64,000 nucleotides of DNA, taken from Chelonoidis abingdonii. Lineage: Eukaryota > Chordata > Testudines > Testudinidae. The notes under the pieces were generated by a model, which saw only the letters and a list, made by a program, of their open reading frames with translations, was not told the origin of the DNA and did not search any database. The translations under genes were made by a program, and so were the position numbers. Positions within the stretch are counted from its first letter, which is position 1; each line of letters starts with the position of its first letter. The stretch is from NCBI RefSeq assembly GCF_003597395.2, contig NC_133782.1, positions 5,931,697-5,995,696 on the forward strand, in the 5' to 3' direction. Positions 1,479 to 45,879 of this stretch are shown here, piece by piece.

Positions 1479-5292
<3,814 letters not shown>

Positions 5293-15605: not shown

Positions 15606-18020
15606 ATGGGACTCAAGTGTTTCCTGTTGTTAAAGCATCACCAGAATCAATCTCGGAGGACACCGCACCAGGTGTAGGCTGTGAGGAGTGCTGCATGTGG
15701 GCTGGGGATGGTAGAGAACAGAAAGGGTTATTTGGAAACAACATGGGATCTGCCTGTAAAGACTGCTATGGAACAAGCTAGACAACCATTTCCTGTTGCC
15801 TAAAATGTGTATTCAACAACCCAAAGCTGAAAGAGGAACACAGAAGGCCAGTTTTCAGGAATGTCACTATCACAGTGCAGAGCAGAGGAGCAGAGCCCAT
15901 GCTCAAAGGTAGATCTTTGCTTCCTGTTTAGGTTGTCCTGGAGAGGTCTCATCTACACTAACAGACACAATCAATCTGGCGACGTCAAGCAGAAGTGCAT
16001 CTAAGAGCAATATTCTGTGTTTAGTCTGAAATTTATTCAGAGCCACAGAGTTCAAAATTGCTTTAGAAAGGTGGGCAAGCCTTATCATCCAGATTGTACT
16101 GATGGGGAAACTGAGGCACAGAGCCCTAAAGTGAGTGTCCCCGTTATATGCAATGGGATTGAGAACACAGCCTTAAAGACTGGTTATTATTATTGTTCTC
16201 CCAGGACACTAGCACTTGTATTCAGCATCCAGTTTTCCATATAGCTATGATATATCCCATTTTCTAATTAGGTGAAAAGTGAAACAGTAAATCAGTGGCT
16301 CTTCCAGAAATAGGACCCAGAAATCTTCTGGCTTCTTGAAGAGAAGTCCTAGAGAATATAACTTTTCTTGAGAATTTTTAAGCCATGCAATAGAATACTA
16401 TAATTCTTGGAGATTTTTAAGGCTTTCAGAATAATTACTATCAAATTCTATTAGTTTCATGCCTATTAAACTCCAAAGATGTTTTCCATAAGGATTTGCT
16501 CTAATCATTAGATTACAGAGCCTCATTGGGTACATCTACACTGCAAGAAACCCTCCTCCCACCTCCCCAGTGGTGGTAAGCCCAGGTCAACTGATTCAGG
16601 CTGATGCTATGGGGCTAAAACCAGCAATGTAGATACGCTGCCTTAGCCACAAGGCCAGGCTTCCCCTCTGCTAAGCGAAAGAGGTTTGGAGTTTTCCTTC
16701 CTGACAAATGATATTACCGGTTATTTCAACTGGTTAGAATGCTTTTGACAAAATGGATTTTGGCTGAAATACGCTGTTTTGTCATAAGTGAAACATTTCA
16801 TGGAGGTAGATCAATTTCAGCAATGTTTTTGATGGGAAGATTTCTGAGGTTCAGGGTGGACTCTGGGCTGGGGTCACATCTGAGCAGAGAGAGCAAGAAC
16901 CCGAATTGAATACCCGACTTTTCTGATCCTCAAATGGACATTTCGACACAAATCTGTTCTGCAAAAACGGTTGAGAGGTTGGGGTTTTTTTTCATTCCAG
17001 GGAGGAACAAACTCAAATTTTGAAACTTTGAAAGTCCTTGCAAAACGGATTGTTGTCTTGAGGCCAGCTCCACTGGTTATTTTGGCTTCCTTTCCAGGAA
17101 AACTCCTTATTTATTCAGTAACAGTTTGGGTTACTGGCCAATGAAGAGAAACAACCAAGAGGGGAAAGCTTGCAAGCAGATTGCATCAGGGTTTTGCTGT
17201 GCATAAGCAAAGCCTCCCTGTACATTCTTGGACTCCCCATCCCTTCCAGAAGGGGGTCAGCTCTACAGCCCCCTTATTAAAACAAACACATCAACACGGA
17301 GTAACTCAGTACATGCAGTGTAACCGGATCCCTGCAAGTCCTTCCCCTTTCCCCACAGCAGCTGTTGCCCTGGCATCCCAAAGGCTTAGTCCCGTACAGA
17401 GGATCCCAGCAATCCTTGCCTGTCTCTCTCCTCCCACCCCACCTCCCTGCCTGCCTTGCTGAAGAGCAGAGGCAGTGGAGAGACGCATGCGCCCCAAGGA
17501 AGCCATCTGCTCGTCCTCATGGAAAAGTGGGATAAAGGTCAGCCAAGCAGGCAGGGAAGAGGGGTCAGGCCAGGTTTCATTTGGTTTGCATTTCTCTCTG
17601 CATTAGGAGTCTGGATTGCCACTTGGGGGAGAAGGGAGGGAGGGTGTCTTTTATCATCTATTGCTAGGAACATGCTATAAACGACCCCAGGAGTACCAAC
17701 ATCTGGAGGCTTTCTTACAGCCACGTCCATGACAAACAAGAAACCTCAGCAGAGCTGCTCACCCCTCTGGGGCCTGCTCCAAAGCCGGTTGAAGTCAACA
17801 AGGAGCCTGGCACACAGGGAGAGAGGAAAGCTGGGTTTGATGTTCTGGCCCCTCCCTGGGAGAGGGAAGGATTTTGGTGTGTGTGTTTCAACAAGATGCC
17901 TACGGCCTCGCTCATCATTGCCACAAATGTCCCTCGTTCCCTTATCCCTTTGCCACAGCGAGGGAGAGCCCCAGCCGTGGTCTCAGCTTGCCCGGCAGCT
18001 GGAAGAGTGCTGTAGAGGAG
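15606..18020. other. Intergenic, nothing assignable
   Basis: The stretch contains AT-rich degenerate repeat-like sequence at about 16690-17060. I see no gene, RNA or bounded element elsewhere. Confidence 0.4.
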
Positions 18021-18024
18021 CTAG

Positions 18025-18620
18025 GGAAGGGATGGGCAAACTTTTTGGCCTGACGGCCACATCAGGGTTCCAAAATTGTATGGAAGGCAGGTTAGGGGAG
18101 GCTGTGCCTCCCCAGACAGCCAGGCGTGGCCCGGCCCCCGGCCCCTATCTGACCCATCTTGCTTCTCGCTCCTCTGGTCATCCCCCCCCCCCTCGGGCCT
18201 CCTGCCCTATCCAACTCGTCCCCCTATTCCGACCCCTGGATGGCATCCCCCAGACCCCCTCCCCATCCAACCCCTCCCTGTCCCCTGACCTCCCCTAACC
18301 CGACTTGCCCCACCATCGCCGCATCCAACCCGTTCCGTCTCATTCCTAGGACTCCATCCCCCCTGGGAATCCCTTGCCCCATCCAACTATCCTCTTATGC
18401 CCTGGCCCTTGACTGCCCCCACGGACCCCTGCCCTAACTGCCCCCCCAGCGCCCCATCCATTTCCGCATCCTCTCATTCCTGACAGCCACCAACCCCCAA
18501 TGACCCTGACCCAGTTCTACCAAGCCCTGCTCCCTGGCCCCTGACTTCCCCTATCTGCCCCATCCAACCCCCCTCCTTCCTGACTGCCCCCCCCAGACAC
18601 GCCGCCCATTCAACCCCCCG
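18025..18620. repeat. C-rich repeat beginning GGGCAAACTTTTTGG
   Basis: GATGGGCAAACTTTTTGGCC near 18029 followed by a long run of CCCC-, CCATCCAACCCC- and TGACCCC-type motifs matches the style of a common turtle non-autonomous DNA transposon. It runs into the duplicated block. Open frames through it (such as 17729-18298) reflect composition, not coding. Confidence 0.5.
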
Positions 18621-21600
18621 TTCCTCACCCTCTGACCCCTCGTGACCCCAATCCATAACTAAGCCCCCACTGACCACCAGCCCAAAACTCCCCACTCTTC
18701 TTCCCCGACCCCCCGAACCCCCACTCCCTGCTCCCGGCAGAGCCATCAGGACAGGCAGCCACACCATTTGGCCATGTCAGGCCATGGCTCTGCAACTGCA
18801 CTGACCGCACAAGAGCTTGCAGCCCAACCGCTGCCCAAAGCAATTGTGGGCCAGCAGCACAGTGAGCTAGACTGCGGAGGAGGGGGGCAGCTGGGGCAGG
18901 GCTGGGGGCCGGGCCTTGAATGCCCACCTCCTGAGCTAGGAAGTGATGATATGCAGAAAGCGATTTTGATAAGGGGAAAATCTCAGGCCTAACCCTGGTC
19001 CTTTTCTGCTTTACATTGTTCTCTTGTTAAAGCGACCTCAGATTGTTCCTCCATTTCCTTCCTGATCCACACTCCCATGGAGACATTGCAACCAAAACCG
19101 TATTTGAGGGACAAATCCCAACCCCGGTGTCATGCACTGCGTCTCTCCCTGGGATGAGTGAGACTGCCCATTCTGTGACTGAGAGTGAAACCAAGAACTG
19201 AATTGCACTCCCAGATGGGAGTTGGGGTGCAAAACTGGGTTTGTAGCGAATCAATGCTTTTTTGGGCCGACTGGAGCTGCTGTCAGCTTGCACAGCCCGC
19301 TGATGGCTCAGGGGCTGTTACAGTACACAGGGCAGCTCTAGCCATGTCCCCCGGCCTCTTGTCCCAGCTGCTTACTGTGCCACAGGGAGGTGGAAACTTA
19401 GGCGTTTAGCACTAGAAACTGCTCCTTCACTGAAGAGAGACCAGGCAATGCTTTTTGCAGAGAGGAGAGGCTTGGAAGTGCCAGAAGAAAATCTCCAGGC
19501 CCTCTGTTGCAAGCCGCAGGGAGAGAACGTGCAGGTTTCTGGGTTTAAAGCTCAGTTTTCCGTGGGTACTCACTTCAGTGAGCCCTTTCCCAAGGCAGCA
19601 AAAGCAACATGTAACAAGGTTAACAGTGGTTACGGTCAACAGTCGAAACTCAGAACCTCACCCCATTGCATTGGCCCAGGACTGGGGGAAATAAACAAGA
19701 GAACACACACAGATAACAAGCCAGGTTGGAGATACTAGCCACCGCCCATCCAGTGCTTGTCAGTACTGGCAACTGTTTCTCAAAGCTGAGAACCACAAAT
19801 ACAATGTTCTGAACTGCCCTTAATTCAAGTTACCTGCCCTGGCGTATAATTTTTCACACAGGAATGGGGCTCAAGTGTTTGTCAGCTGGAACCCTTCACA
19901 GAAGGTTTTGGGTTTTTTTTAGAGTACATCTGCCAGCCCAGCCTGCTCCAAAGAAGGGCTTAGACCGTCAGCAGAATCCTCAATCCAACGGTTTTGATCC
20001 AAGTGATCAGCTCTCCAAGGTGCTCAGCACCATTAGTCTCCTATAATTTCTGATCCCAGGAGATGCTGACCCACCTGCTGCTCCTACTGGCCCACAGGGA
20101 GCTGCACGGGGTCAGCCCTCACCACTAATCAGGCCCCATAGTGGCTAGACTTGTGGGCAGGGGACATAACAATTGTGGGTGTGTATATCAGCTGTTTTCC
20201 CTGGGGCTAAACGGGAAACATTCTCACTATAGCAGTATAGGGCACGATATAATCACTGCCAGTTCCTCCACCCCTCTGAAGAGGGATAACCACTTTTTCT
20301 AGACTTGTTTCAACCCAAAAAAAACCCCCTGGGGAAAATTTCAAATTTAACATCCCTTTGGCCCCATGGAATGCGTCATAACATTAGGCACAGCATCTGC
20401 AGTAAAAACTGCTGTCTTCCAATAGCCGAATCAGCTCTGCAAGGAAGTTATGGACACACCCAACTCCCCCCTAAAATGACTTGGCGGGGTGGGAAGAAAA
20501 GAGTTATTTGAAGGATAGTTCGTCAGCAGCTGCAGACATGCCACTTAAATTTGGACATATGAAGCCTACGTCCGTGTAATACTGTAAACTGATCTAGTCT
20601 GAGCCAGGGATACCCGCTGTTCGCCCCCACGTGGCACTCACAACAAAGCCAGCACTCAGTACCACATAGTTCAAGAGGGAAACAGTGGCGCACTCAATTG
20701 GCTTTTTTCATTTGCTTCGCAAGGTCAGGCACAGCAAATCTATGAACTGGCTGATCATGATGGGTTGGACTCAAATGACTCAGGACGTCCTTCCAGTCCT
20801 GTTGTCCTACAGGCAGAAATGTTGCGGGACTGGCATTAGCAAGTTACAGCCCCTTCCTCAGCTTATTTGGACATGAGAAACACTGATGGAAAATTATTTA
20901 ACTGCACAGTACATATGGAACCCCCACAAATTCATTACCATCAAAAGAGCTCCACCTTTGGCCCAGATCCCCAGCGTCCCGCAGTATTTGCTAGCAAACA
21001 GCGTGGGGGTAGGAGGAAAAGAAGAATGGCGGGTGGTATGATGCATGCAAGCAGGAGCCAGGTGTGGCCAGCTCTGAATTCTGCTCCTTCGCAATTTATA
21101 CTTCCGGCCTTTCGTCATGGCGAGAATATGCTCCTCAGATGTCTATGCCGGGAATCAAGGTGATGTGAGAAGTCATGGCTGGCTTGAACATGGGGATGTC
21201 AGCGTGTTGCTCTGGCCATCATTATTCCCACTGATTCCAGAACTGATTGAGGAAGTGATTTTATTTTTTCCCCTCAAAACACTTTAAACATCTGAAGCCA
21301 TTAAATGCAGCGTGAATCGGCCAAGCAGCAGTTACACCCATTTCACTGTCATACACACTCTTGTGAAACACACATGATTGCCTTCTCACTTTCACGAATT
21401 TTCACTCCCTCCTATCCCAACAGGACTTGATTATTTGGGTAAGTCACTATCACTCACATCACAGGAGGCTCTGATTCAGTGTCTTTTTTAATAAATTGGA
21501 GGAGAGTTTCATGATCCCTTCCCACTAAGAGCAGCATTCCCCCCTCATGAAAAATAACGCCTGAATAATAAGATATAGAATAAACCCTGCTGCAACATGC

Positions 21601-24600
21601 CATTTTCCCAATTTTATGGCATCTCTTTCCACCCCTACCTTTCGTAAGTAAGCCCCTGTGGATTGCCGAGATTAGCCACATAAAAGTATTTGTTCTTCTC
21701 TTGTGAAAAATGGCAAACAGGAAAAGCAAGACCAGATTTCAGTTACAAGACACAAGAGGAAAGTACATCCCTTTAGGTTTGGACTAGGTCATGATAATGA
21801 GTATGTAATTTAAGGAAAGATTTGTGTGTTCCAAAACAGAGATAAAAAACAATTGTTGGTAAACTGTTCTAGAGTACTCTGGGGTTACCAATGGTTCTAG
21901 TGCAAAAAAGCCCCCTTTTGGACACCTTATAGTATCACTGTTTTCATACACACAGTGCAGGAGAAGATCCGACTGCCTGTTTCTTTTATTTCTCCATTTG
22001 CTACAGTAAGTTTGAGATTTTGGGCTTTTACTCATCACATTTTACACAACGCCAAAGAGACTGTTGCCATAGACAAGGCATCACGAACGTCTGAAGTCAT
22101 TTATAACAGCTGAGCACCAGACATTTCCCTATAAACTTGAGCATCATGCAAATTAGTCATAGATAGTTTAAGACTTTTGGTTTATAACCTACATTTTGCT
22201 TTTGGAACCGATAGAGTACCAGTTAATCCATCTCAGCACGGAAGGGGTGCACTAGCCTGCCTTCCTTAAGGTTGCTTACACCCTAATTCTTTCGTGATTC
22301 TAAGAAACCTGGAAATGTTTTTATTTGGGGGTAGGCCGGTTTGCAGCAAGACGTTTTTCCACAGCTTGTATTTTCAAAAAAAAGTCAATGAGCTGTGACT
22401 TTTGCCTATCAAAAGATGATTGTTTTTCACTAGAACACCTATGAAACACTGGTTTGGCTCTGGATGAGGAGAGGTTGCAAGTTAATTTTAAAATCTCCCT
22501 GTAAGCCTTTTATAGCTCAGAATGTCTTCCTTGTTTCTAACTAGGGATAAAAATAATCTGCTTGCAGGAAATTGGTGCCATTAGAAACTTGATATTCAGT
22601 CACAAAGGGGCTGCCAAACCTGGTTTTCAAAAAAAGCTGTGCACCTAACTGCATGAACTTGACTGACACATATAGATGCAGTTCAAACAATTGTATGTTG
22701 CACAGGAATAGTGACATTAGCTATCTAACAAGAGCAGACCAAGTCTTGAATCAGGGCCACTTTTAAACGTTAAGTCTCAAGCCTTTTTTTTTTTAATCTA
22801 CTCGGTTAGATTTTACGAAAAATAAATAACTAATTGTTTCCAACCAATGGAGGTCGATAAATTGGTCTATCTATATCTACTTTAAGATTTGTGCTTGAGA
22901 GAGTAAGGCCATGCAAGCATGGGCCACATTACTGTAGCACTCAGCACTCAATTTGTTCTAAAAACAACCTACCGACAATCAGGGAAGCTGCAGTAAGAGT
23001 GAACTTCCTGCTCCTTGCCCACGCTGGAACCGCTTATGATAAGGCCGACTAATGCAGGACATGCTGTTAAGTTATCTGAAGACACACAGCCACGTAGTGG
23101 GTCTTAGAAAAGTTTAACCTACAGCAGTTTCAAAAGCAATTGAGAGATTCCTATTAATGTAGGTCAAGTGCTTTTGTGGCCAGGGCATTTGTAACATACA
23201 ATTTTATCTTTCAGGCAAGTGCTAACATTTCTCACTGGAGCAGTGGCCATACACAGCTGCTGACAGAACAAACCTTTTGTGCAGATATGGCCCTGTTATT
23301 TGTCTGGCAAAGTAACAACTAAAAGAAAAAGCCCATTAAGAAATATGGGCTTATGGTTCCATGCACGTAGATGTGTACACATGCAGCGTTCAAGCAACTG
23401 AGTAACCTTCATTGTGATTCAGCCTGCCCGGCAATCAATACATGGCATTATATACAGAGGTCAGTCTATCATTTAATTGTTGCCCGAATGTTAGTTTCCT
23501 TTTGACAGTGCTTGTACAGAGATCCTCTGTACCTGATTAAGAACCAGCGTGCTTGATAAGCCAAAAGGCGATTTGGTCTCCAGCCTGCAGCGAGCCAAAA
23601 GGTAGCAGCCGATAACTGAGGTGACGTCTACGGCAGGGTTTTGAACCTTTTTTTATTATTTATTATAGCAATAGTCAGATGCTGAGAAGAGGCAAAATGA
23701 TCAGGAAGAATTATTCTGTCTTTGCGCATCAATGACTGGAATAGAAAGAAACAGCTTCATATTCCCTCAGTACACTGAAGCGCCTTTGACACAGTGACTG
23801 AGTACTATCAATGCTACCCCTAATCAGATGGCAGAGCCTCCATTCAACCTACCTTCGCCTTGTGCATAGGTGAGTGATTCTACACAGGTAGAGCTGGAGG
23901 GAGGGGGCAACCTGAAAAAGGACACCTAGTGACATGCTGGCCCACTACTGGAAGGCCTGCAGAGATATCCTGCCAATTTTGATGAGCAGCAGCTGAAGGA
24001 GTCAAAGCCTTAATCATCATTTCACAATATCACAAGAAGGAGACCGGCTTTCAGAGGGTGCTTAAACCAGAGCTGCATTTGTCAAGCATACTGTCAACTT
24101 GTCTGTAAGTAGCCAAGGCCTGGGGGAACTCCCCTCCTTGTCACCAAGATTAAGAGGAACTGAGCAAAGGTGGAAATTTCATTTAGTGTGATGCACATTT
24201 GTCCCATGTTCAGGTCAATGTGTGAAACAGCTCCAAGGCATGTAGCTGCAGGTGTACATGGAATGATTTTGGCAACAGTAAGTGGCCTGAACCACTATTG
24301 TGTGTTGCATGACAGTAGCTCAAGTTGGCAGGCGGTATCTGAGCCATCTTGCTTATTACTAAAAGTAGCCAAGTCATGCAGGCTGTAAATCTGGTCATGC
24401 TTGTGAGGCCTGCAGGCATAAACCAAGACAGGAGGGGAGGAGGGTTTGGGTGCTCACGGACCAGGGTAGCTTAACACCCAGCCTTCCTGCTGAGAATGTT
24501 TGTAAATTGCTGATCAGGTATTTTAAGAAAACCAGGAAGTCTATGGTGCCCCCAGGAATCTTTGTCAGGGAACCAAAGCATGGACACTGAAAAACAAAAA

Positions 24601-25561
24601 AAACCTGTATCTGGTAAGACTGATAAGGAAATCTCTTTCTTGAGCTTTTAACCCTGCTTGCTTAGTAAAGATCTTTAAGAGATATGTCAATTGTATTACT
24701 AAAATTATAAATAAAAGGGAAAGTTTTTAGATAATTGGACTACTCTAACGGGGCTCTTTAGGGATGCTCCCTCTGGAACACATTCTTGGGGTCCCCAACT
24801 TGCAGAGCAGAAAGCCTCTTATGGTGCACTGAACCACACTCAGCTTCGGTAATTGAGGGGTGAAGACCTGCGAAGTACTGAGACTAAAGTAAAGTGTAGC
24901 TTAGGTGAAAGCCTCATGTTGTTCTTTTGTGGCAGCCATCTTCGGTCAGATGGCATCTCCCTGATTTCCTGACACCCCCTCGCCCAGAGTAGTTACCAGA
25001 GCTTTGGGTTTGAAGACGGTGGGTAAAGCAAGCCCCTCTAAACAGAGCAGTAGCCGTAGAGAAGGGCAGAGGCTCACATTAATCTTTTCCACACGGATTA
25101 AGGCACACGGTCAAGTTTTTAGTTCCATTGAACAACTAAACAAAGTGTTACCAAGGCTGTATTTTTTGGAAATGAATACAGTCCAAATTAAAGAACAGTT
25201 ACAAAGTGGGTAAATTTTTTGTTTGTGTTTTTTTTAATAAAAAACCTACATCTAAATACTAATGTTCAGCTGTCTACTCTACGGGGAAGGGGAGTGAAAA
25301 TGGGCTCTGACTCCTACGTTTGGATCAGAGCAGCGCCAGCAGGCAGCAGGCAGATGTGCACCTGTTACGCAGACGGCCAGCGCCGGTTGCTGGCCTCACT
25401 GGCGTGGCGCTTCTCATTACTTCCTGAGCCAGGCCACAAGTGATCATGCCGTTGCCACCTGGATAAGTTCCTGAATCTGAAAGACAGAGACACATGGGTG
25501 CAGGGAAAACGAGAGAGCAAACCATCTTTGACAGCAGCTGCCTCCGATACAAGCTGGTGAA
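18618..25561 (+). repeat. Left copy of a ~6.9-kb direct duplication
   Basis: From about 18618 to the gap edge the sequence is repeated in the same order and orientation at 25867-32680. Shared landmarks include the segment from TCAGGACAGGCAGCCACACC (18747/25986), the GTCAGGCACAGCAAATC block (20725/27887), and the PPDPF last exon. Offsets drift from about 7249 to 7119, so copy 2 is ~130 bp shorter, almost all through 1-2 bp indels. Apart from the PPDPF exon it is non-coding, with a CR1-like 3' end near 20735-20815. Confidence 0.93.
25333..25480 (-). pseudogene. Frameshifted second copy of the last PPDPF exon (probable assembly artefact)
   Basis: The minus strand repeats the PPDPF terminal exon, including the CTTTCAG acceptor and GGCATGATCACTTGTGGCCT. 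It carries about eight differences in ~120 bp from the copy at 32481-32595. Most are single-base gains or losses (ACTTATCC against ACTTTCC, GGTGGCAAC against GGTGGCCAAC, ATGAGAAGC against ATGAGGAAGC), and the TGA is lost. It lies 80 bp from a 25-N gap at the end of the left duplicate. The pattern looks like uncorrected read error rather than pseudogene decay. Confidence 0.8.
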
Positions 25562-25586
25562 NNNNNNNNNNNNNNNNNNNNNNNNN
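25562..25586. other. Assembly gap, 25 N
   Basis: This run of 25 N separates the left duplicate, which ends exactly here, from 280 bp of unduplicated sequence and then the right duplicate. The uniform small size suggests a placeholder rather than a measured gap. Confidence 0.98.
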
Positions 25587-25866
25587 TCTAATTCTATAGT
25601 ATGAGACAATATATTCATGTCATGTTTAAGAAAAATTTTGTAAACGAGTTCCAATAGTTCATGGATTAGGGACCCAATTTTATGGGGATCCAGGAGCTTC
25701 TGTACAGATTATTTAGGTTAATCTTTCTATCTACCCAATGGGACTCAGCGCTCACTCTAGAACAGAGGTGGGCAAACTACGTTCCGTGGGCCACATCAGG
25801 CCCGTGGGACCCTCCTGCCTGGCCCCTGAGCTCCTGCCCCAGGAGGCTGCACCCGGTCTATCCTGC
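25587..25866. repeat. Right-contig head with a C-rich interspersed repeat
   Basis: These 280 bp between the gap and the right duplicate have no counterpart upstream of the left duplicate. From about 25764 (AGAGGTGGGCAAACTACG, then GGGCCACATCAGGCCCG) the sequence resembles a common turtle repeat that begins with a GGGCAAACT motif. It runs into the C-rich edge of the duplicated block. Confidence 0.55.
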
Positions 25867-28800
25867 TGTTCCCCACCCTCTGACCCCCTGACCCCAATCC
25901 ATACCCTACCCCCCTGACCACCAGCCCAAACTCCCCAGCTCTCTATCCGACCCCCGACCCCACTCCCTGCTCCCCGGCCAGAGCATCAGGACAGGCAGCC
26001 ACACCATTGCCATGTCAGGCCATGGCTCTGCAACTGCACTGACGCACAAGAGCTTGCAGCCCCACCGCCCAAAGCATTGTGCCAGCAGCACAGTGAGCTG
26101 AGACTGCGGAGGAGGGGGGCAGTGGGGGCAGGGCTGGGGGGCCGGGCTGAATGCCCACCTCTGAGCTAGGAATGTGATGATGATGCAGAAAGCTGGATTT
26201 TGAATAAGGGGAAAATCTTCAGGCCTAACCCTGGTCCTTTTCTGCTTTACATTGTTCTCGTTAAAGCTGACCTCAGATTGTTCCTAATTCCTTCCTGCTC
26301 CCACTCCCATGAGACAGCACCAAACCGTATTGAGGGACAAATCCCAACCCCCGGTGTCAATGCAGCGTTCCTCCTGGGAGAGTGACCCCATCTGTGACTG
26401 AGACCAAGGAGCATCTGATGCACTCCAGAGGGAGTGGGGTGCAAAACTGGGTTTGAGCAATCAATGCTTTGGGCCGACTGGGAGCTGCTGTAGCTTGCAC
26501 CAGCCGCTGATGGCTCAGGGGGCTGTTACAGTAGCACAGGGCAGCTCTAGCCATGTCCCCCCGGCCTCTTGTCCAGCTGCTTACTGCTGCCACAGGGAGG
26601 TGGAAACTTTAGGCGTTAGCATCTAGACTGCTCCCTTCACTGGAAGAGAGACTCAGGCCTGCTTTGTGCCAGAGAGGAGAGGCTTGAAGTGGCCAGAAGA
26701 AAATCTCCAGGCCCTCTGTGCAAGCCGCAGGGAGAGAACGTGCAGGGTTTCTGGTTTAAAAGCTCAGTTTTCACGTGTGGGACTCACTTCAGTGAGCCCT
26801 TTCCCAAGGGCAGCAAAAGCAACATGTAACAAGGTTACAGTGGTTAAGGCAACAGTCGAAACTCAGACCTCACCCCATTGCCTTGGCCCAGGACTCTGGG
26901 GAAATAAACACAGAGAACACACACAACCAGGTTGAGATTACTAGCCACCGCCCATCCAGGTGCTGTCAGTACTGGCACTGGTTCTCAAAGCTGAGAACCA
27001 CAAATACAATGTTCTGAACTGCCCTTAATTCAAGTTACCTTGCCCTGGCCGTATAATTTTCACACAGGATGGGGGCTCAGTGTTTGTCAGCTGGGAACCC
27101 TTCACAGAAGGTTTTGGGGTTTTTTTAGAGTACATCTGCCAGCCAGCTGCTCCAAGAGGGCTTAGACAGTCAGCAGAATCCCTCATCCACGGTTTGATCC
27201 AAGTGATCAGCTTCTCCAAGGTGCTCAGCACCATTAGCTCCTATAATTTCTGATCCCAGGAGATGCTGAGCACCTGCTGCTCCTACTGGCCCCAAGGGGA
27301 GCTGCAAGGGGTCAGCTCCTCACACTATCAGGCCCATAGTGGCTAGACTTGTGCGGCAGGGGACATAAAATTGTGGTGGTGTATATCAGCTGTTTCCTGG
27401 GGCTAAAGGGAAACATTCTCCTATAGGCAGTATAGGGCACGATATAATCACTGCCACTTCCTCCACCCACTCTGAAGAGGGATAACACTTTTGCTAGACT
27501 TTGTTTCAACCCAAACTGGAAATCAATTACATTCTGCATGATGCGTCATACATTAGGCACAGCATCTCGCAGGTAAAACTGCTGTCTTCCATAGCCGGAT
27601 CAGGCTCTGCAAGGAAGTTAGGACATCACCCAAACTCCCCCTAAATGACTTGGCGGGGTGGGAGAGAAAAGAGTTAATTTGAATGGATAGTTCGTCAGCA
27701 GCTGCAGACATGCCACTTAAATTTGGACATAATGAAGCCTACGTCCGTGTAATACTGTAAACTGATCTAGTCTGAGCAGGGATAGCCTGCTGTTCGCCCC
27801 CATCACAACAAAGCCAGCACTCAGTACCACATAGTCAAGAGGGAAAAGTGGCTGGCACTCAATGGCTTTTTCAATTTGCTTCGCAGGTCAGGCACAGCAA
27901 ATCTATGAACTGGCTGATATGATGGGTTGGACTCAATGACTCAGGACGTTCCTTCCAGTCCTGTGTTCCTACAGGCAGAATGTGCAGGGCTGGCAATTAG
28001 CAAGTTACAGCCCCTTCCTCAGCTTATTTGGAAATGGAGAAACACTGATGGGAAATTATTAACGCACAGTACATATGGAACCCCCACAAATTCACTACTC
28101 AGAACAGAGCTCCACCTTGGCCCAGATCCCCAGCTGTACGCAGTATTTGCTAGCAACAGCTGGGGGTAGGAGGAAAAGAAGAGCAGGGGAGAACTGCAAA
28201 GGAGCCAGGTGTGGCTCCTTGATCCTGCTCCTGAATTTATACTGGCCTTGGTCATAAGTTGCTCAGTGCAGCCTCAGGTGATGTGAAAGTCTGTGGCGAG
28301 AATGGTCAGGTGTTGCTCTGGCCATCATTTCCCACTGATTCCAGACTGATTGAGGAAGTGATTTTATTTTTCCCCTCAAAACACTTTAAAAACATCTGAA
28401 GCCCATTAAATGCAGCGTGAATCGGCCAAGGCAGCAGTTACACATTTCACTGTCATACACACTCTTGTGAAACACACATGATTGCCTTCCACTTTACACT
28501 GAATTTTCACTCCCTCCTATCCCAACAGAATATTGATTTATTGGGTTAAGTCACTAGCACTCACATCACAGGAGGCTCTGATTCAGTGTCCTTTTTAATA
28601 AAGGAGGAGAGTTTCATGACCTTCCACAAAGAGCAGCATTCCCCCTCATGAAAAATACGCCTGAATAATAAGATATGAGAATAAACCCTGCTGAACATGC
28701 CATTTTCCAATTTTATGCATCTCTTTCCAACCCCTCAGCCTTTCTGTAAGTAAGCACCTGTGGGATTGTCGAGGATTAGCCACATTAAAAGGTCATTTGT

Positions 28801-31800
28801 TCTTCTCTTGTTGAAAATGCAAAACCAGGAAAAGTCAGACCAGATTTAGTTACAAGACACAAGAGAAAAGTATCATCCCTTTATGTTTGGACTAGGTCAT
28901 GATAATGAGTATGTAATTTTTAAGGAAAGATTTGTGTGTTCCAAAACAGAGATAAAAAAACACAATTGTTGGTAACTGTTCTAGGAGTACTCTGGGTTAC
29001 ACAATGGTTCTAGTGCAAAACAAGCCCTTTTGGACACCTTATCAGTAATCAGCTGTTTTCATACACAAGTGAGGAGAAGATCCGACTGCTGGTTTCTTTT
29101 ATTTTCTCCATTTGCTTACAGTAGTTGAGATTTTGGCTTTTACTCACACATTTTACACAAGCCCCAAAGAGACTGTTGCCATAGACTAAGGCATCACGGA
29201 ACTGTTCTGAAGTCATTTATAACAAGGACCTGAGCAAAGACATTTCCCTATAAACTTTGAGCATCATGGCATTAGTCATAGATGAGTTTAAGATTTGTTT
29301 ATAACCTACATTTTGCTTTGACCGAAGACCAGTTAATCCAGTCTCAGCAGGAGGGGTGCACTAGCCCTGCCTTCCTTAAGGTTGCTTACAGCCCTAATTT
29401 TCTGTGATTCTAAGAAACTGGGAAATGTTTATTTGGGGGTAGGCCGGTTGAGCAAGACGTTTTCCACAGCTTGTATTTTTCAAAAAAAGTCATTGAGCTG
29501 TGACTTTTTGCCTATCAACAAGATGATTGTTTTCACTTAGAACACTATGAACTGGTTTGGCTCTGAATGGAGGGAGAGGTTGCCAAGTTAATTTAAAAAT
29601 CTCCCTGTAAGCCTTTATAGCTCAGAATGTCTTCCTGTTCTAACTAGGGATAAAAATAACTGCTTGCAGAGAAAATTGGTGCCATTAGAACTTGATTATT
29701 CAGTCACAAAGGGGCCTGCACAAACCTGGTTTTCAAAGCTGTGCACCTAATCTGCATGAACTTGACTGACACATATAGATGCAGTCAAACAATTGGTTAT
29801 GTTGCACAGGAATAGTGACATTAGCTATCTAACAAGAGCAGACAAGTATTTGAATCAGGGCACTTTTAAAAGTTAAGTCTCAAGCCTTTTTTTTTTTTTA
29901 AATCTATCTCGGTTTAGATTTTACAGAAAAATAAATTAACTAATTGTTTCCAACCATGGAGGTCGATAAAATTGGTCTATGCTATACTACTTTAAGATTT
30001 GTGCTTGAGAGAGTAAGGCCATGCAATGCATGGGCCACATTACTGTAGCACTCAGCCACTCATTTGTTCTAAAAACAACCTACCAGACAATCAGGGAATG
30101 CTGCAGTAAGATGAACTTCCTTGCTCCTTGCCAGCTGGAACCCTTATGATAAAGGCCGACTAAGCAGGACAGCTGTTAAGTTATCTGAAGACACAACAGC
30201 CACGATAGTGGTCTTAGAAAAGTTTACTACAGCAGTTTCAAAAGCAATGAGAGATTCCTATTAATGTAGGTCAAGTGCTTTTGTGCCAGGGCATTTGTAA
30301 CATACAATTTTTACTTTCTAGGCAAGTGCTAACATTTCTCACTGGAGCAGTGGCATACACAGCTGCTGACAGAACAAACCTTTTGTGCAGATATGGACTG
30401 TTATTTGTCTGGCAAGTAACAACTAAAAGAAAAAAGCCATTAAGAAAATATGGGCTTATGGTTCCATGCACGTAGTGTGTGACACATGCAGCCTGTCAAG
30501 CAACTGAGTAACCTTTCATTGGATTTCAGCCTGCATCCGTGCATCAATACATGCATATATAACTGCAGAGGTCAGTCTTCATTTTAATTGTTGCCGAATG
30601 TTTAGTTTCCTTTTTGAAGTGCTTGTTTACAGAGATCCTTCTGTACCTGCATTAAGAACCAGGTGCTTGAAAGCCAGAAAGGCGATTTGGTCTCCAGCCT
30701 TGCAGCTGAGACTCAAAAGGTAGCAGCCGATAACTGAGGTGACTTCTACGGCAGGGTTTTAACCTTTTTTTATTATTATTATTAGCAATAGGTCAGATGC
30801 TGAGAAGAGGCTAAAATGATCAGGAAAGAATTATTCTGTTCTTTGCGTCATCATGACTGAATAGAAAGAAAAAGCTTCATATTCCCCTCAGTACACTGAA
30901 GCGCCTTTGAACAGTGACTGGAGTACATCATGCTACCCCCTACTCAGATGGCAGAGCCTTCACTCTCACCTACCTTCGCCTTGTGCAAGGTGATGATCTA
31001 CACCAGGTAGACTGGAGGGAGGGGGGAAACCTGGAAAAAGGACAACCTAGTGACATGGCTGGCCACTATGGAAGGCTGCAGAGATACCTGCCCATTTTGA
31101 TGAGCAGCAGTGAAGGAGTTTCAAAGCCTTAATCAAACATGTTCACAATTCCAGAGAAGAGACCGTGCTTTCAGAGGGTTGCTTAAACCAGAGCTGCAGT
31201 TTGTCAAGCATACTGTCACTGTCTGTAAGTAGCCATAGGCCTGAGGGGAACTCCCCTCCTTGTCACCAAGATTTAAGAGAAACTGAGCAAAGGTGGAATT
31301 CATTTAGTGTGATGCCACATTTGTCCCCATGTTCAGGTCATGTGTGAAACACTCCCAGGCATGGTACTAGCAGGTGTACATGGAGATTTTGGCAAACCAG
31401 TAAAGTGCCTGAACCACTATTGTGTGTTGCTGACAGTAGCCAAGTTGGCAGGCCGTACTGAGCCATTCTTGCTTATTACTAAAAGTAGCCAAGTCAGCAG
31501 GCTGTAAATTGGTCATGCTGTGGCCTCAGCATAACCAAGACAGGAGGGGAGGAGGTTTGGGTGCCACGGACAGGGTAGCTTAACCCCACAGCCTTCCTGC
31601 TGAGAATGTTGAAATTGCTGATCTAGGTATTTTAGAAAAACAGGAAGTCTATGTGCCCCCAGGAATGTTTGTCAGGGACCCAAAGCATGGACACTGAAAA
31701 ACAAAAAAAAAACCTGTATCTGGTAAACTGATAAGGAAATCTCTTTCTTGAGCTTTTAACCCTGCTTGCTTAGTAAGTTCTTTAAGAGATATGTCATTGT

Positions 31801-32229
31801 ATTACTAATTATAAATAAAAGGGGAAAGTTTTAGATAATGGGACTACTCTAAAGGGGCTCTTTAGGGATGCTCCCTCTGGACACATCTTGGGGTCCCCAC
31901 TGGCAGACAGAAGCCTCTTATGGTGCCACTCGAAAACCACACTCAGCTTCGGTAATTGAGGGTGCAGACCTGCGTAAGTACTTGAGACTAAGTAAAGTGT
32001 AGCTTTAGGTGAAAGCACTCATGTTGTTCTGTTTGTGGCAGCCATCTATCGGTCAGATGGCCATCTCCCCTGATTTCCTGACACCCCCTCGCCCAGAGTA
32101 AGTTACCAAGAGCTTTGGGTTGAAAGAACCGTGGGTAACAGCAGCCCCTCTAAGACAGAGCAGTAGCACTCAGTGAAGGGCAGAGCTCACATTAATTCTT
32201 TTTCACACGGATTTAAAAGGCTGCTTAAG

Positions 32230-32235
32230 TTTATT
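32230..32235 (-). terminator. PPDPF: Putative PPDPF polyadenylation signal AATAAA
   Basis: The minus strand has AATAAA about 245 nt past the PPDPF stop codon, implying a 3' UTR of roughly 260-280 nt. The matching site in the left copy of the duplicated segment is not intact. Confidence 0.45.
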
Positions 32236-32480
32236 AGTTTCCATTGAACAACTAAACAAAGTGTTACCAAGGCTGTATGGAAAGAATACAGTCAAATTAA
32301 TGAAACAGTACAAAGGTGGTGTAAATTTTTTGTTTGTTTTTTTTAAAAAAAAACCTACATCTAAATACTTAATGCAGCCTGTCTACTCTACGGGGAAGGG
32401 GAGTGGAAAATGGGCTCTGACTCCTAGCGTTTGGATCAGAAGCAGCAGCCAGGCAGGCAGCAGCAGATGTGCCAGCCTGT

Positions 32481-32595
32481 TCACGCAGACGGCCCAGCGC
32501 TCGGTTTGCTGGGCTCACTGGCGTGGCGCTTCCTCATTACTTCCTGAGCCAGGCCACAAGTGATCATGCCGTTGGCCACCTGGAAAGTTCCTGAA
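32481..32595 (-). CDS. PPDPF: PPDPF terminal coding exon (intact copy)
   Basis: The acceptor is CTTGTCTTTCAG ending at 32596. It encodes SGTFQVANGMITCGLAQEV, then a basic/Ser-Pro tail ending GPSA, and TGA at 32483-32481. It lies inside the right copy of the ~6.9-kb duplication, and this copy keeps the frame throughout. Confidence 0.92.
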
Positions 32596-35500
32596 CTGAA
32601 AGACAAGAGACACATGGGTGAGGGAAAACGAGAGATGCAAACCATCTTTGACACAGCTGCCTCAGATACAAGGCTGGTGAACTGCAGCTCCCTGCTCTCA
32701 TAAGAGCTCCTCATATGTTCCCACTGCAGTGATTCCAGAACAGACTTCTAGTGAAAGTCCAGAGACTGTGGAAGCACCCAAACTCAGCCATCACTGCTCC
32801 AGACTGGGCAGCACTTCCTGGCTACAGTGAGAAACATCTGCAACAAAAAGCTGTGCTAGCCAACAACAGGGTCTTATTGGTAGCAACAGCTCCATTGTCT
32901 ACTGGCTAAGGCAGCTGGAGCTATTCTCCCGCTCCCTCTGACTTGCTGCATGCACAGGGCTGCATGCAACCATGTGTGCATACAAACTAGTTAATCCACA
33001 TCTGCACCTGCAGTTTCTACTGCTGCTGCCTGTGCAAGCTGGGCCTGGAATCACCATCCCTAGCATTTAATCTCTGGCTCTTTTCCTGCACTTCTTGGGT
33101 CTGACCACTAAGCTTTGAGGACACTTTCCTTGAGGGCCACTACATTTGGTCCTTTATTGTACCAATTTTCAATGGCTACAAAGGAAAAATAAATCCTTCC
33201 CTCCTCTGAAACTTGTAGAATGCAGCAGAGAGAAGAAGGACTTTCTGTTCGTGACATGCAGTGTTGTTGTAGCTGGGTCAGTCCCAGGATATTAGTGAAA
33301 TTAACTTCTCTCTCTCACCAACAGAAGTTGGTCCGTAACCCACCCTGTCATCCGGTTCATGATGGCTTTTGCACAAAAAAACATTTCAAACAAGCCATTA
33401 GCTTCCCCTACTCCACCCAGTTAAACAGATGTTCCATCTTCCACAACATCTGAAGAGATAGGCCCAGATCCTCAAAGGTATTTAGGTGCTTAACTAACTC
33501 CCATGGGAGTTAGGCAGCTGAGGAGGATATGGGCCTCAGAGTTTTAGGTCTAGTATCACCTCATAATAATGAGTGACAGTGCTACTATTCCCGGCTACAG
33601 TGATTCCTTTTGCCTCCATTAGCCCTTTGCTGCTGAGTGGATTATTAAGATTCAAAGCACTTCAGGAGAGACCATCTGGAAAGTATTCTAGATATGTGGT
33701 GCAGAATACAACTAAGCAGAATTATAAGAAGTTACCGTTTGCATTCCTGTATAGTCCTCCCTTGTCCTTGCCACGCCAATATTCCAAAACACCCTTCAAG
33801 CTTCTTAATTTATCTCCATTACCATATTCTGAATGAGCTAAAACAAACGTCCACTTACTTCTCTGGGGATTCCGACACAGTTGTCATAATAGGATGAGTT
33901 GGCTTTCCAAAGAAGAAGCTAGCCCACCAGTGACCAGGGTCAGACTTGGGAAGACCTGAAAAGCAAATACTTATGAAATATGACCGCTGGGTACATGCAA
34001 CTTGATTAGGAGATCCAGCAGAAATAGGTACTTCCCTGATTACCATGGTGGTCTTGCTACATATGCAAAAGGACAAATTAAGAAACTGGCACTCCGCAGT
34101 GGTGCCTCATGAAGGAGTAGAAGCCAGCTACAACAACTTCAGTCCTCCTCTATGGAGGTTTCTCTCTATAGGGATTTTTCTGCCATTATAAATGGTTCTG
34201 TATAACCCATGGATAATGTACTTAGTTAGCACTGAGAATGTTTTTTAACCTACAGTGATCCTCTGAAGAGCCATGGAGAAGGTAGTTTGTTTTGTATTAA
34301 AGTTAAGGAGATGGTACAAGAGCGTTTTGACCATAAGAGTTCCCCTCCATGGGAGGCTGGGCCAGAGAGCCCAGGCTGTAGGAGAGGTGCTTACCCGGAT
34401 GGTGAGGAATAACCTCCCCAGAGTATTCAGCACTTCCACAGGAGCTGTTGCTGGAAGTGGAACCCAGACGCCCTGTGAACGAGATTGCATCTCATCAGAC
34501 CAACATTCCCCTCTGCCAAAATTAGATCTACTGCTGTAATGAACATCCTCACTGCAGTTAGCACATGGTTTGCCATTAAAGATAAAGTATTCGCCATGTT
34601 ACTGCTTCTTAGGCTCAGGTGCCAGTTTCCATACCAGCTAACGTCCTGTTCTGAGTATCGGTGGGTATGTGCCACCCTTTTAATGGCATCCACCCTACAC
34701 AGCAAGCATTAGAGCATGTTTGAAGGACGCGTTAGTCTGCCATCACACATTTGGAGATATTTTTAAGCGCTCCTTTACAAGATTTCTTGGCACAGTGTTT
34801 TAAGAATAGATTCTTTCACACCCGAAGGACAAAGAATAATCTCAAACAGCTTTCTTGGCAAACTAGGTAATTACAAGCAGCAGCAGGTTAATGCCACAGG
34901 TTGGAACACAGGTGGTGCTACACGGACATAACACCTTACAAAACCGTTTGGAAAAAGTCTTTATGGAACATCTCACTCAGCAAGTGGATACAAGTAACTA
35001 ACTCACACTCCATATCTTGCAAGACACAAGTATAAGCTGTATGTAGGATTCTAGGTCATGGAGGGAGGGGGAAGGTTTTGGTTTCATACACACTGGGAGT
35101 CTCCCCTTCTACTGTGGGTGAGACAAAGGCCTGGTCTATGCCTAAAATTTAGGTTGACCCAACTAAGTTGCTCAGAGCTGTGAAAATGTTGCCACTTGGG
35201 CACCGTGGTTAGGTCAACCTAATCCCCAGCATAGACACAGTTAGGTCAACGGATGGATTCATCCATCACCCGAGCTACTGCCTCCTGGAGAGGGATTACC
35301 TACATGGAAGGGTTTTTTCCGTCAGTTAATGCAGGAAGCGTCTCTCCTACAGCGCTACAGCTGATATGCCACTGTAGCACAGACATTCCTGCAAGGAGGG
35401 ACTTGCCCGACATGTGGCAACTATAGAGATTTACCCTTTGGCCAAAAGGATCTTGCTGGAGAGCAACAACGATCCGAACGTAGACGGTGCTTTATGTGAC

Positions 35501-36925
35501 AAGGTCCCACAATATCAATTCCTCCCCTCCAACCTGCAGTGGCCGGGCCACTCTGTGAATTGGGGCCAGGGAAGGGGCACCCCTCCCCCGGCCGGTCCCC
35601 AGGCAGGTTCCCTAAGTGCCTGTGTGGTGCTAAATAGGCTGCTGCATGGCCAGTGCGGCTTACAGGGAATCTTAGAGGCTTGGGAATGGGCGACGGGGAT
35701 GGATCACTTGATAACCTGTTCTGTTCATTCCCTTTGGGGCACCTGGAATTGGCCACCGTCAGAGGACAGGATACTGGGCTAGACTGACCTTTGGTCTGAC
35801 CCACTACGGCCATTCTTGTGTTCTTAATCCTCAGCTGGTGCTATCTGGTAAAGCTTTATGTTAGCTCAGACCACCTGAGGATCTGGCCCTGTACTTAGGC
35901 TCATGTATTTTTCTGTTTACTTTGCCGTCTGCAGAAGTATTTGTTCTACGCAGCATTTAGCTAGCCACCTCCCACCCTATGCTCTCAGGAGCTTTAAGGT
36001 AACTCTAGAAGAGCTACCTCAAGAAGAGGAAAACAGCTGTTAACTCCCCGCCCCCATTGAGAAATCATTGTTCCTTTGTTTGTATGGTAGCTCATATGGT
36101 TAAGTACAGACAATGTTCGCACAATTAAGGGAGTGTGGATCATTATCTCCCTGCTCAGTACTAAATAAGACTCATCCCTATTCTTGGTTCTTCCTCTCCT
36201 TTTTCAACAAAAAATACTGCAGTGTCAGGAATTTGTTTGGCATGAACAAAAAGCGGTCTTTGTTTAAAGAGAGCCTAGTGCCTGGATGGATCATGTTTAT
36301 TTCAGAAATGCCATGACATTGCCATCAGCAGATACTTCTTTAAGTTAATCCACACTTTGGGTCCCAGGAGTTCTGTATGTGATTCTTTGAAAGGAACAAT
36401 CGAGATAAACAGTACATTGGCTATGCATTGAGAAAAGATGCAGAAGCCAATGGCTTTGGCATAGGCACACAGTAAACTAGAATAGGAGATTATCTAAAGC
36501 ACAGATCTTTCAAACTGGCATTTCCAAAGGCATCTAAGGGATTTGAGTGCTCATCCCTCACTGAATTTCAATGGGATTTGAGCACCCCAACTCCCTCAGA
36601 TGCCTTTGGAAATGCAAGTTTAATAGGAGCCTATAAATACACTGTGGTTGGAAAGCAAATTTGACTGTTTTTGAGCAGTTGTACATGGGCATTACAAACT
36701 TCCGCCAAGATAAGAGGAGAGTTCAGCGACTTTTCTTAGCAAGACCCACTCCACAGAAAAAGGTTTGAGCTAGATAGATATATTCCCCACCCACCCACAC
36801 GAGCTGCTGCCGTGCGGTTTGTGAGCACCTCCATTTTGTACCAATTGAAGGACAACGTAGCAGTTCTTACTTCTGTAGTAGTCATGGGTTGCCACAAGTG
36901 AGCCGCTTGATGGGATTGCTGCCAT
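32481..36925 (-). CDS. PPDPF: PPDPF, pancreatic progenitor cell differentiation and proliferation factor; complete spliced CDS
   Basis: Four coding exons on the minus strand (36925-36871, 34472-34395, 33955-33859, 32595-32481; 55+78+97+115 nt) join in frame to 345 nt: 114 residues plus TGA. That is the length of human PPDPF. The N-terminus MAAIPSSGSLVATHDYYRRR, the Ser-rich GSTSSNSSC, the core DPGHWWASFFFGK and the tail GMITCGLAQEV match the family. Every junction has AG/GT. The start ATG has A at -3 and G at +4. The protein has no signal peptide or membrane segment and appears small and Ser-rich. The family (zebrafish exdpf) is linked to exocrine pancreas growth; its biochemical activity is not evident from sequence. 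The gene converges on PTK6, as in human. No single ORF spans it, so ORF-based annotation would miss it. A damaged second copy of the last exon at 25333-25480 is probably an assembly artefact. Confidence 0.95.
32681..33250. other. PPDPF downstream flank, nothing assignable
   Basis: This unique sequence lies immediately right of the duplication and left of PPDPF exon 4, so it belongs to the last PPDPF intron. No further exon is seen. Confidence 0.5.
33256..33336. mobile_element. Short interspersed repeat fragment
   Basis: TTGTTGTAGCTGGGTCAGTC and CTCTCTCACCAACAGAAGTT resemble a widespread turtle/crocodile retroelement. I associate this loosely with Penelope-like elements; the fragment has no clear ends. 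Confidence 0.35.
33458..33545. repeat. Foldback MITE-like repeat, second copy
   Basis: GCCCAGATCCTCAAAGGTAT then ACTCCCATGGGAGT form an inverted pair of the same family as the PTK6 intron repeat at 2060-2216. It lies in the last PPDPF intron. Confidence 0.55.
33859..33955 (-). CDS. PPDPF: PPDPF exon 4: conserved HWWASFFFGK core
   Basis: The acceptor is GCTTTTCAG ending at 33956 and the donor is GTAAGTGG starting at 33858. It encodes LPKSDPGHWWASFFFGK followed by PTHPIMTTVSESPE, and ends with two bases (AA) of a split Asn codon. The aromatic core is the most diagnostic PPDPF motif. Confidence 0.93.
34395..34472 (-). CDS. PPDPF: PPDPF exon 3: Ser-rich segment
   Basis: The acceptor is CGTTCACAG ending at 34473 and the donor is GTAAGC beginning at 34394. 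It enters in phase 1 and encodes RRLGSTSSNSSCGSAEYSGE then VIPHHPG, with the last Gly codon split. It matches human RRLGSTSSNSSCSSTE closely. Misread frames of this exon give unrelated-looking peptides on both strands. Confidence 0.9.
35131..35400. mobile_element. MITE-like DNA transposon in PPDPF intron 2
   Basis: The sequence AGGCCTGGTCTATGCC, then TTAGGTTGACCCAACTAAG and GTTAGGTCAACCTAATCCCC, has internal complementarity and the GGTCTA-type end of a frequent turtle MITE family. The right end is degraded and no target duplication was found. Confidence 0.5.
35640..35826 (+). mobile_element. CR1-like LINE 3' end
   Basis: AGGACAGGATACTGGGCTAG followed by ACCTTTGGTCTGACCCACTA and GGCCATTCTTGTGTTCTT is the 3' terminal consensus of a turtle CR1 subfamily. 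It is in plus orientation, antisense to PPDPF, within intron 2. Confidence 0.65.
36520..36615. repeat. Palindromic MITE-like repeat
   Basis: GCATTTCCAAAGGCATCTAAGG is mirrored by CCTCAGATGCCTTTGGAAATGC around a centre near 36570. It is a short inverted repeat in PPDPF intron 2. Confidence 0.55.
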
Positions 36926-38780: not shown

Positions 38781-40985
38781 TAACCGGGAGAGTGCTACTT
38801 TAATATTAAAGAATAAGAATTGTATGGTGCTCGGTTTCCACTGCTCTTCATCATCCGACACACAGAGTCAGGCTATCGTAAGTAGAAATAACGAAGGAAA
38901 CAAACATGCCCATTTACTTCAACCACTGAGTTCTCTGCACTACCTTCCAAGCATACAGCCAAGGAACAGTTTATTCCCTCCTGTCAACAGAACAGTCAGC
39001 TAATTATGAGCAGCACCTCGTAATCTAGCCCATTATTCACCATTAGCTGTGAAAAACATGGTATGAAATATTAAGTATTAATGTAGCTGGACTACAGGCA
39101 CATACTCTGGACACAATGTCAGCCCTGCTGCCATCTGACACATCTGCTGACCTGCGAGTGAAGTACAGCTGGCTGGGAAAAGGTGGTTTTTTTTGTCAAA
39201 GCTCGAGCCAGCTCTACCAAAAAAAATGCAATTCTAGATTTAATGGTAGAAAGTTACAGTCCAAAGCAGTCCATAGCCCTCAAAGGATTGAGTAGTTATC
39301 AAAACATCCTGTATGTGCTGATGAGTGGTATGTAGAAAAGACAAAGCTGCCAGCTAACATTAGCTAGGGTGTGGCAGCCTTTCCTTCCTGATGTGCACTT
39401 TGGAAGTGACACGTCTGGCAAACCAGGCCACTGCAGCAGCGCCACTTGTAAGCCACAGCCCACTGGCTTAATGGAGTGCTTCTGCAAAGGCACATTATAC
39501 CTCTTCTTCACACACTAATCTAACATTGGTCTGTTTCCAGGCAAAATTCACTAAGTTTTTCCAATCTGGCTGCCTAAGGAACTGCTGCTTCCTATTTGTC
39601 CTCATGGCTGCTAAGATGCAGTCCCCAGAAACTGGAGAACTGGAGGCAAAATGTTCCCAGATGGTCCCCCACTGTGGAATCCCTTGCTGTTTAGGCAAGC
39701 TAGAGGCAGAGTTTGTTAAGTTTTCAGAGCAGAGTACAAGACTTGCCTTCCTCTGGCCAACACACTGTTCACTCTTCTGTTTAATAAATTGTTATTTGTT
39801 TGCATGTGACAAGCCCGTAGCCACAGAACCTAACTATAGCATGATTCAGTGAGAACACAATCTTCAGCATTCTCCTATTTTAAAGCCAACTTCATGCTAG
39901 TCTTAGCACAGATAATTTGTTACTATGAAACGTTTACAAAATAATTAGTTAAGGAAACCAATTCAGTGAAGTACAGTTGATCCAAGCAGCTTCTCCAGAC
40001 AAATTAACATGCAGGGATTTAAATCTGAATCCGGTAACACTGCCTGTGGGAAACATCCCAGAAGGTGGATCACACCTATGCTGCTACTTATCGGACAGAT
40101 GCTCTGTCAGACACAGGGGAAAAGGTGCATTTAGGACAGTGATACTCAGACCTCAGTGGTTCAGGAGCTAAATTAGTGACCAACATTAGCTAAAAGAGCC
40201 ATAGTAGTGTAAATTCATTGTTTCATTTACTATAATACTATATATTCATATTTAAATAGTAGGACAGGGAAAATATTTAGTTTTTATATGCATTATTCTC
40301 ACAGCAAAATGACCAAAGTATTAATTTATCCACTACAAACAGTAAACATAGTAAAGCACCCAAATTTAATTAACCAGTCACACTGTGTTTTAATATCATG
40401 TGCTGCAAAGAGACACAGGAGAGACGTTAAACAGCTGCTCAGAGCTCCAGAGCCTCAGTCTGAGCATCACTGGTTTAGCATATGCCCAGGCCCAGCCATC
40501 CCCTGCTGCTGCAGATAGCTATTCACACTGTGCTTCCCCAGCAATCTAGTGTTAAGGTGATCATGTAGAATACAGTAGAGAGGAAGACTAGGGGGACAGT
40601 TATGAAGGTTATGATCTAGTAAGTTAGATGTGCTCTCGGACAAACTCAGTACCCTTCATGGCAATAGAGCTACAGGAGCAGGGAGCCTTGGGAGAAATTC
40701 CTCATATCCTAATAACCAGCACCACTGACAAGGTCAACCCAACTATTCCCAACCAAGGAGAGTGTCTACAATTCATCACCTTTCAATGGAAGGAAGAATG
40801 ATTAAGGGACAGGGCTTTAATTTGAAGTTCAGCTACCAAAGGAAGAAAAAACTGAAACAGTAGCTGTATATTACATAAAACTGGTCATGCTCCATCTTGC
40901 TACTAAATGCATATCCTGGGTATTTCCATGTCCCTCACCTTACTATAGATCTAAACAGCTCATGGTGTTCAGTGTGTTTACCCTC
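38781..40985. other. PPDPF intron 1, nothing assignable
   Basis: I see no coding or structured feature. Short ORFs, including a 108-codon one at 39526-39852, have no recognisable domain. Confidence 0.4.
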
Positions 40986-44268: not shown

Positions 44269-44296
44269 TTCAGAGGCAACGCCGCAGCAGCATGGC

Positions 44297-45875: not shown

Positions 45876-45879
45876 ATAT

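What the first reader, a model, noticed from the sequence alone, without database searches (positions are those of the whole stretch)
18618..32680. ~6.9-kb direct duplication abutting a 25-N gap looks like a false assembly duplication
Two copies (18618-25561 and 25867-32680) share order and orientation. They differ mostly by scattered 1-2 bp indels, with far fewer substitutions than real divergence would give. The left copy ends at the base before the gap. This is the signature of two unmerged contig ends or haplotigs from imperfectly corrected long reads. It inflates the PTK6-PPDPF interval by about 7 kb.
Basis: partly seen in the sequence, partly recalled or inferred. Interest (0 to 1): 0.75.

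Follow-up and report, generated by a model that had tools for sequence, protein, structure and literature searches.

The report
False assembly duplication beside a gap
A stretch of about 6.9 thousand letters appears twice in this vertebrate genome most likely because an error-filled long-read copy was left unmerged next to the clean copy at an assembly gap; it is an ordinary assembly artefact, not biology.

Summary
Window 18618-25561 (A) and 25867-32680 (B) are one direct repeat, 89.3% identical. A stops at the base before a 25-N gap; 280 bp of other sequence follows before B. The differences look like long-read error, not evolution: 86 substitutions (21 transitions) against 605 indel events.

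Two lines of evidence make A the bad copy. A has more CpG and less natural oligomers than B; calibration suggests A carries about 75-100% of the noise. And the repeat holds the last coding exon of PPDPF (minus strand): open in B (Pfam PF15060), frameshifted in A.

Likely route (about 0.7): an overfilled gap. A long-read extension of the left contig ran past the start of the right contig, the overlap went unrecognised, and a minimum 25-N gap was kept. This matches published PBJelly behaviour (PMC3504050, PMC6733440); overfilling is suspected in the snapping turtle assembly (PMC9635638). The species and pipeline of this window were not identified.

A repeat with hAT-like ends lies at the break. 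Its flanking 8-mers suggest, without proving, that the 280 bp before B are foreign. The false sequence is 6.9 or 7.2 kb accordingly.

The parts
18618..25561 (+). Left copy A: error-rich duplicate that ends at the gap
   Evidence: CpG 16.6/kb vs 11.6/kb in B; less natural oligomers than B in 10 of 10 bins; frameshifted PPDPF exon
25562..25586 (.). 25-N gap
   Evidence: PBJelly is reported to inflate gaps under 25 bp to exactly 25 bp by default (PMC6733440, passage)
25587..25866 (.). 280 bp between gap and copy B; possibly foreign, with a hAT-like terminus at 25763
   Evidence: the 8-mer before the terminus, CTCTAGAA, agrees with AGCTAGGA at the right end at 5 of 8 positions
25867..32680 (+). 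Right copy B: the cleaner copy, contiguous with the sequence to its right
32481..32597 (-). Last coding exon of PPDPF in B, open to its stop (upstream edge taken from the profile match, splice site not determined)
   Evidence: PF15060 (PPDFL) E=2.3e-7, 31.5 bits, cut-off 27, profile 77-109 of 110; translations
25366..25478 (-). Counterpart of that exon in A, spread over frames by indels (coordinates read off the alignment)
   Evidence: the one frame of A submitted reaches E=0.11, 13.1 bits, under the cut-off
18027..18933 (+). Repeat with hAT-like ends at the left edge of A, flanked by AGCTAGGG (18019-18026) and AGCTAGGA (18934-18941)
   Evidence: the family name is recalled
33858..33959 (-). 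PPDPF internal exon (profile match), outside the repeat
   Evidence: PF15060 E=2.5e-15, profile 44-77
36869..36925 (-). PPDPF first coding exon (profile match)
   Evidence: PF15060 E=2.5e-7, profile 1-19
3021..3200 (+). PTK6 kinase exon (stretch searched), left gene of the interval
   Evidence: Best PDB hit Protein-tyrosine kinase 6, E=3.8e-25

Best explanation
A single genomic segment of about 6.8 kb is represented twice. B is the accurate copy. A is a stretch of uncorrected or thinly corrected long-read sequence appended to the end of the left contig, which probably stopped in or near a C-rich transposon-like repeat. The extension ran past the point where the right contig begins. At about 11% difference the overlap was not recognised, so both were kept, with a minimum-size 25-N gap between them. 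Supported here: the repeat, the error-like spectrum, A as the noisier copy, the broken exon in A. Inferred: the overfilled-gap route by PBJelly or a similar program, PacBio-type reads, and 25587-25866 as a wrong extension through another copy of the repeat. False duplication of some kind: about 0.95. The overfilled-gap route as stated: about 0.7, the figure given here.
For: 605 indel events to 86 substitutions, 21 of 86 transitions (p=2e-15 against two thirds, p=0.09 against one third). Two simulated divergence runs give 0.32 and 0.41 indel events per substitution by unit edit; two error runs give 3.71 and 4.83; observed 7.03. A less natural than B in 10 of 10 bins and in 270 of 442 difference clusters, z 6.2; calibration puts about 75-100% of the noise in A. 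If A were true and B noisy, B should hold 23.4 CpG/kb; it holds 11.6. PPDPF last exon open in B, frameshifted in A. A ends at a gap of exactly 25 N. PBJelly defines gaps as 25 or more N and reports overfilled gaps whose extensions have no identifiable overlap (PMC3504050, passages); it sets short gaps to exactly 25 bp (PMC6733440, passage).
Against: A's CpG excess (16.6/kb) is smaller than uniform error on B predicts (20.0, sd 1.2), so errors are not uniformly random or B carries a minority of them. One of six unaltered control segments, 40500-48248, scores as low as A (-2.0076 against -2.0058 bits), so the absolute score alone does not mark A; the paired comparison does. Differences are more uneven than chance (variance 23 on mean 10.7 per 100 columns). 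Error simulations used rates measured from A and B, so their fit is partly built in. No reads, assembly record or species were available. 25 N as a mark of one program is indirect.
Confidence: 0.7

Rival explanations
1. Same kind of artefact by another route: an unpolished long-read contig merged or scaffolded against an accurate contig, with 25 N as a fixed or estimated spacer.
For: Merging can also duplicate regions (PMC9635638, passages); the snapping turtle assembly, for one, combined gap filling and merging (PMC7718744, passages).
Against: Exactly 25 N beside a long extension fits gap overfilling better. The insertion excess in A (408 bases against 278 missing) looks more like PacBio than Nanopore error (recalled).
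Confidence: 0.25
2. Heterotype false duplication: A and B are the two haplotypes of one locus, both kept.
For: Heterotype duplication is the main source of false duplications in earlier assemblies according to PMC9516828 (passages), although its table gives more homotype than heterotype for the earlier Illumina hummingbird assembly (27.2 against 13.7 Mb).
Against: 605 indel events to 86 substitutions with 21 of 86 transitions, and a frameshifted PPDPF exon in A. So many 1-2 base indels are far beyond allelic variation (recalled). A small allelic component beneath the noise cannot be excluded.
Confidence: 0.03
3. A real tandem duplication whose left copy has decayed.
For: Same order and orientation, close together.
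Against: Simulated real divergence (9.5% substitutions, 1.2% indels, my assumed rates) gives 0.32 and 0.41 indel events per substitution by unit edit, not 7.03. Real substitutions favour transitions (recalled). The left copy ends exactly at a gap.
Confidence: 0.01
4. A question within the artefact readings: the left boundary of B is the true one, and A is a misplaced extension by reads from B's locus that aligned to a repeat at the left contig's end.
For: The terminus at 25763 matches the right terminus at 12 of 12 positions, against 9 of 12 for the one at 18027 (sequences, counted by eye).
Against: The flanking 8-mers agree at 7 of 8 positions for the A boundary and 5 of 8 for B (counted by eye), and the sequences left of 18618 and left of 25867 share only short matches, where mis-mapping would need a long one.
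Confidence: 0.3

Closest known systems
Homotype false duplication (VGP term; PMC9516828, passages)
   Same: Under-collapsed sequence caused by accumulated read errors, with a gap between the copies
   Different: Read depth and k-mers, which define the class, could not be examined here
PBJelly overfilled gap (PMC3504050; PMC9635638; passages)
   Same: Contig-end extension that reaches past the gap, no overlap recognised, gap kept
   Different: The pipeline behind this window is unknown
Suspected overfilling in the snapping turtle assembly (PMC7718744; discussed in PMC9635638; passages)
   Same: Illumina draft filled with PBJelly; 186 Mb growth called potentially spurious
   Different: No evidence that the window is that species; its PacBio reads were error-corrected and the result polished with Pilon, which fits an 11% error stretch less well

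Membership tests
Homotype false duplication | Gap between the duplicated pair | tested here: met
   25 N at 25562-25586
Homotype false duplication | Difference caused by sequencing error rather than alleles | tested here: met
   Indel and transversion spectrum and simulations; broken exon in A. Inferred from sequence, without reads
Homotype false duplication | Very low accurate-read depth, no haploid k-mers in one copy | not testable with these tools
   No reads held
PBJelly overfilled gap | Remaining gap of the program's default size, 25 N | tested here: met
   Exactly 25 N; passages
PBJelly overfilled gap | Error-rich extension abutting the gap | tested here: met
   A abuts the gap and is the noisier copy
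PBJelly overfilled gap | Program used in making the assembly | not testable with these tools
   Assembly not identified; the genome search 'own' did not answer
Real segmental duplication | Substitution-dominated, transition-rich divergence | tested here: not met
Heterotype false duplication (haplotigs) | Haploid-depth support for both copies | not testable with these tools
   No reads held
hAT-type transposon at the break | Inverted termini and 8-bp target-site duplication | tested here: inconclusive
   7 of 8 match for the A boundary; 9 of 196 CTAG-centred 8-mers in the window match the target that well, the tested sites included; termini match only partly

The most novel reading that the evidence does not exclude
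The same signature (exact 25-N gap, noisy copy on one side, clean copy on the other, sometimes a broken orphan exon) recurs across this assembly and creates many false exon or gene duplications, which could be found from sequence alone by indel spectrum and CpG excess.
Probability: 0.5. Interest if true: 0.25.

Novelty: not a real feature. Interest (0 to 1): 0.12.

Why it matters
It adds about 7 kb of false sequence between PTK6 and PPDPF and a broken second copy of PPDPF's last coding exon, which annotation could report as a pseudogene or partial duplicate. The useful point is practical: the bad copy can be told from the better one without reads.

Tried and rejected
Rfam on the whole window at gathering thresholds: no match. 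Search of the window's own genome: six attempts, none answered, so recurrence across the genome is untested. Third copies of the repeat elsewhere: one exact IUPAC pattern, 0 matches in viral contigs and 0 in genome contigs, so the 280-bp boundary could not be polarised. Matches of A or B in the rest of the window: none at E 0.01 with low-complexity filtering. Tandem repeats in 16000-36000 at score 50: none. The second gap (528 N): no direct repeat of 30 bp or more in 47000-50500. MAFFT was rejected as a guide to the indel ratio after the control. A test whether the start of B is an inverted piece of the same element gave scores at the edge of 200 shuffles (26, with 3 shuffles as high; 28, with none as high) and is not used as evidence. 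A search for papers with Chelonoidis abingdonii and PBJelly listed 0. Passages of PMC4580222, PMC7757076, PMC6240028 and PMC8280923 were seen and not used. In this version the confidence of the best explanation is 0.7 instead of 0.95: the 0.95 belongs to 'false duplication of some kind', and the route has a rival at 0.25.

Full report
Observation. Self-comparison of the window finds one direct repeat of 150 bp or more: 18620-25561 against 25868-32681, 89.3% identical over 7194 columns. The left copy (A) ends at 25561, the base before a 25-N gap; 280 bp follow the gap before the right copy (B).

Nature of the differences. With unit edit costs the copies differ by 86 substitutions and 605 indel events; 408 bases are extra in A and 278 missing from it. 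Five pairwise schemes give 2.0 to 7.0 indel events per substitution. Default MAFFT gives the reverse, 225 gap events to 932 substitutions. To decide, B was given either long-read-like error (rates taken from the A/B comparison, so the fit is partly built in) or divergence (9.5% substitutions, 1.2% indels, assumed), two runs each, and realigned in three ways. Error runs: MAFFT 213 and 220 gap events with 927 and 872 substitutions, close to the observed; unit edit 3.71 and 4.83, below the observed 7.03; strict affine 1.83 and 1.52 against 2.0. Divergence runs: 0.09 and 0.12; 0.32 and 0.41; 0.11 and 0.14 (observed 0.24, 7.03, 2.0). Of 86 substitutions 21 are transitions, against two thirds expected of real ones (recalled; p=2e-15) and one third of random error (p=0.09). 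Differences lie along the whole length, 7.5 to 16.9% per 361-column bin, leaving out a 2-column last bin, though more unevenly than chance (mean 10.7, variance 23 per 100 columns in 72 bins).

Which copy is wrong. CpG observed/expected is 0.316 in A, 0.221 in B and 0.381 in the 280-bp stretch; eight other, partly overlapping segments range from 0.189 to 0.413, the highest being 40000-48248. Under an order-6 model trained on window sequence outside the repeat, A is less natural than B in 10 of 10 bins and in 270 of 442 difference clusters. Against a simple reading of the score: one of six unaltered control segments, 40500-48248, scores as low as A. Calibration on five flanking segments, four replicates per setting and two insertion models, places about 75-100% of the noise in A: the observed fraction, 0.611, and mean delta, 0.039, fit full noise in A; the CpG difference, 5.0/kb, lies between the 75% and 100% cases. 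The simulations have fewer insertions that repeat a neighbouring base (0.41 or 0.56 at full noise in A) than observed (0.64), so the error model is only approximate. B may carry a minority of the noise.

A coding exon inside the repeat points the same way. The last lies at the right end of B and, for its coding part, inside it, in one open frame to the stop. The one frame of A submitted reaches 13.1 bits, under the cut-off of 27. A's frames each hold only part of the exon; across B 32470-32640 there are 160 identical columns of 174, 10 bases missing from A, 3 extra in A and 1 substitution. PTK6 is at the left of the window, so PTK6-PPDPF is the right name for the interval.

Mechanism. PBJelly extends contig ends with long reads; a gap is overfilled when the two extensions have no identifiable overlap but exceed the predicted gap (PMC3504050, passages). 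It is reported to inflate short gaps to exactly 25 bp (PMC6733440, passage). A benchmark gives its filled sequence 89.23% mean identity on a human test with simulated reads (PMC8848313, passages), like the 89.3% here, perhaps by coincidence. A fish genome study counted 28,377 overfilled gaps in its own PBJelly assembly and called the 186-Mb growth of the snapping turtle assembly potentially spurious (PMC9635638, passages). That turtle assembly used ALLPATHS-LG, PBJelly with error-corrected PacBio reads, Pilon and quickmerge (PMC7718744, passages); whether this window is from it is unknown, and correction and polishing would speak against an 11% error stretch surviving. False duplications from read error are called homotype (PMC9516828, passages).

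The break. A repeat with hAT-like termini (recalled family) spans 18027-18933. Its flanking 8-mers AGCTAGGG and AGCTAGGA agree at 7 of 8 positions; B's left terminus at 25763 is preceded by CTCTAGAA, 5 of 8. This favours A's left boundary as native and 25587-25866 as foreign. Against it, B's left terminus matches the right terminus better (12 of 12 against 9 of 12, by eye). I hold the first at about 0.65. If right, 18618-25866 (7249 positions, 25 N included) is false; if wrong, 6944.

Verdict. A false duplication (about 0.95), ordinary in kind, most likely by an overfilled gap (about 0.7).

Noticed in passing
48249-48776: Second gap, 528 N, next to a GC-rich imperfect palindrome with 30-nt arms at 48186-48241; no direct repeat of 30 bp or more in 47000-50500.
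   Followed up: partly
53377-54043: Near-palindrome of about 660 bp: the stretch matches its own reverse complement at 89%.
   Followed up: no
49823-50169: Inverted repeat, arms of 163 nt, 85% complementary, 21 nt apart.
   Followed up: no
40000-48248: CpG observed/expected 0.41, the highest of the segments measured; long open frames near 43.3-44.2 kb may mark a CpG island.
   Followed up: no
63273-63587: 105-aa open frame on the minus strand that resembles the end of a non-LTR retrotransposon protein (recalled).
   Followed up: no
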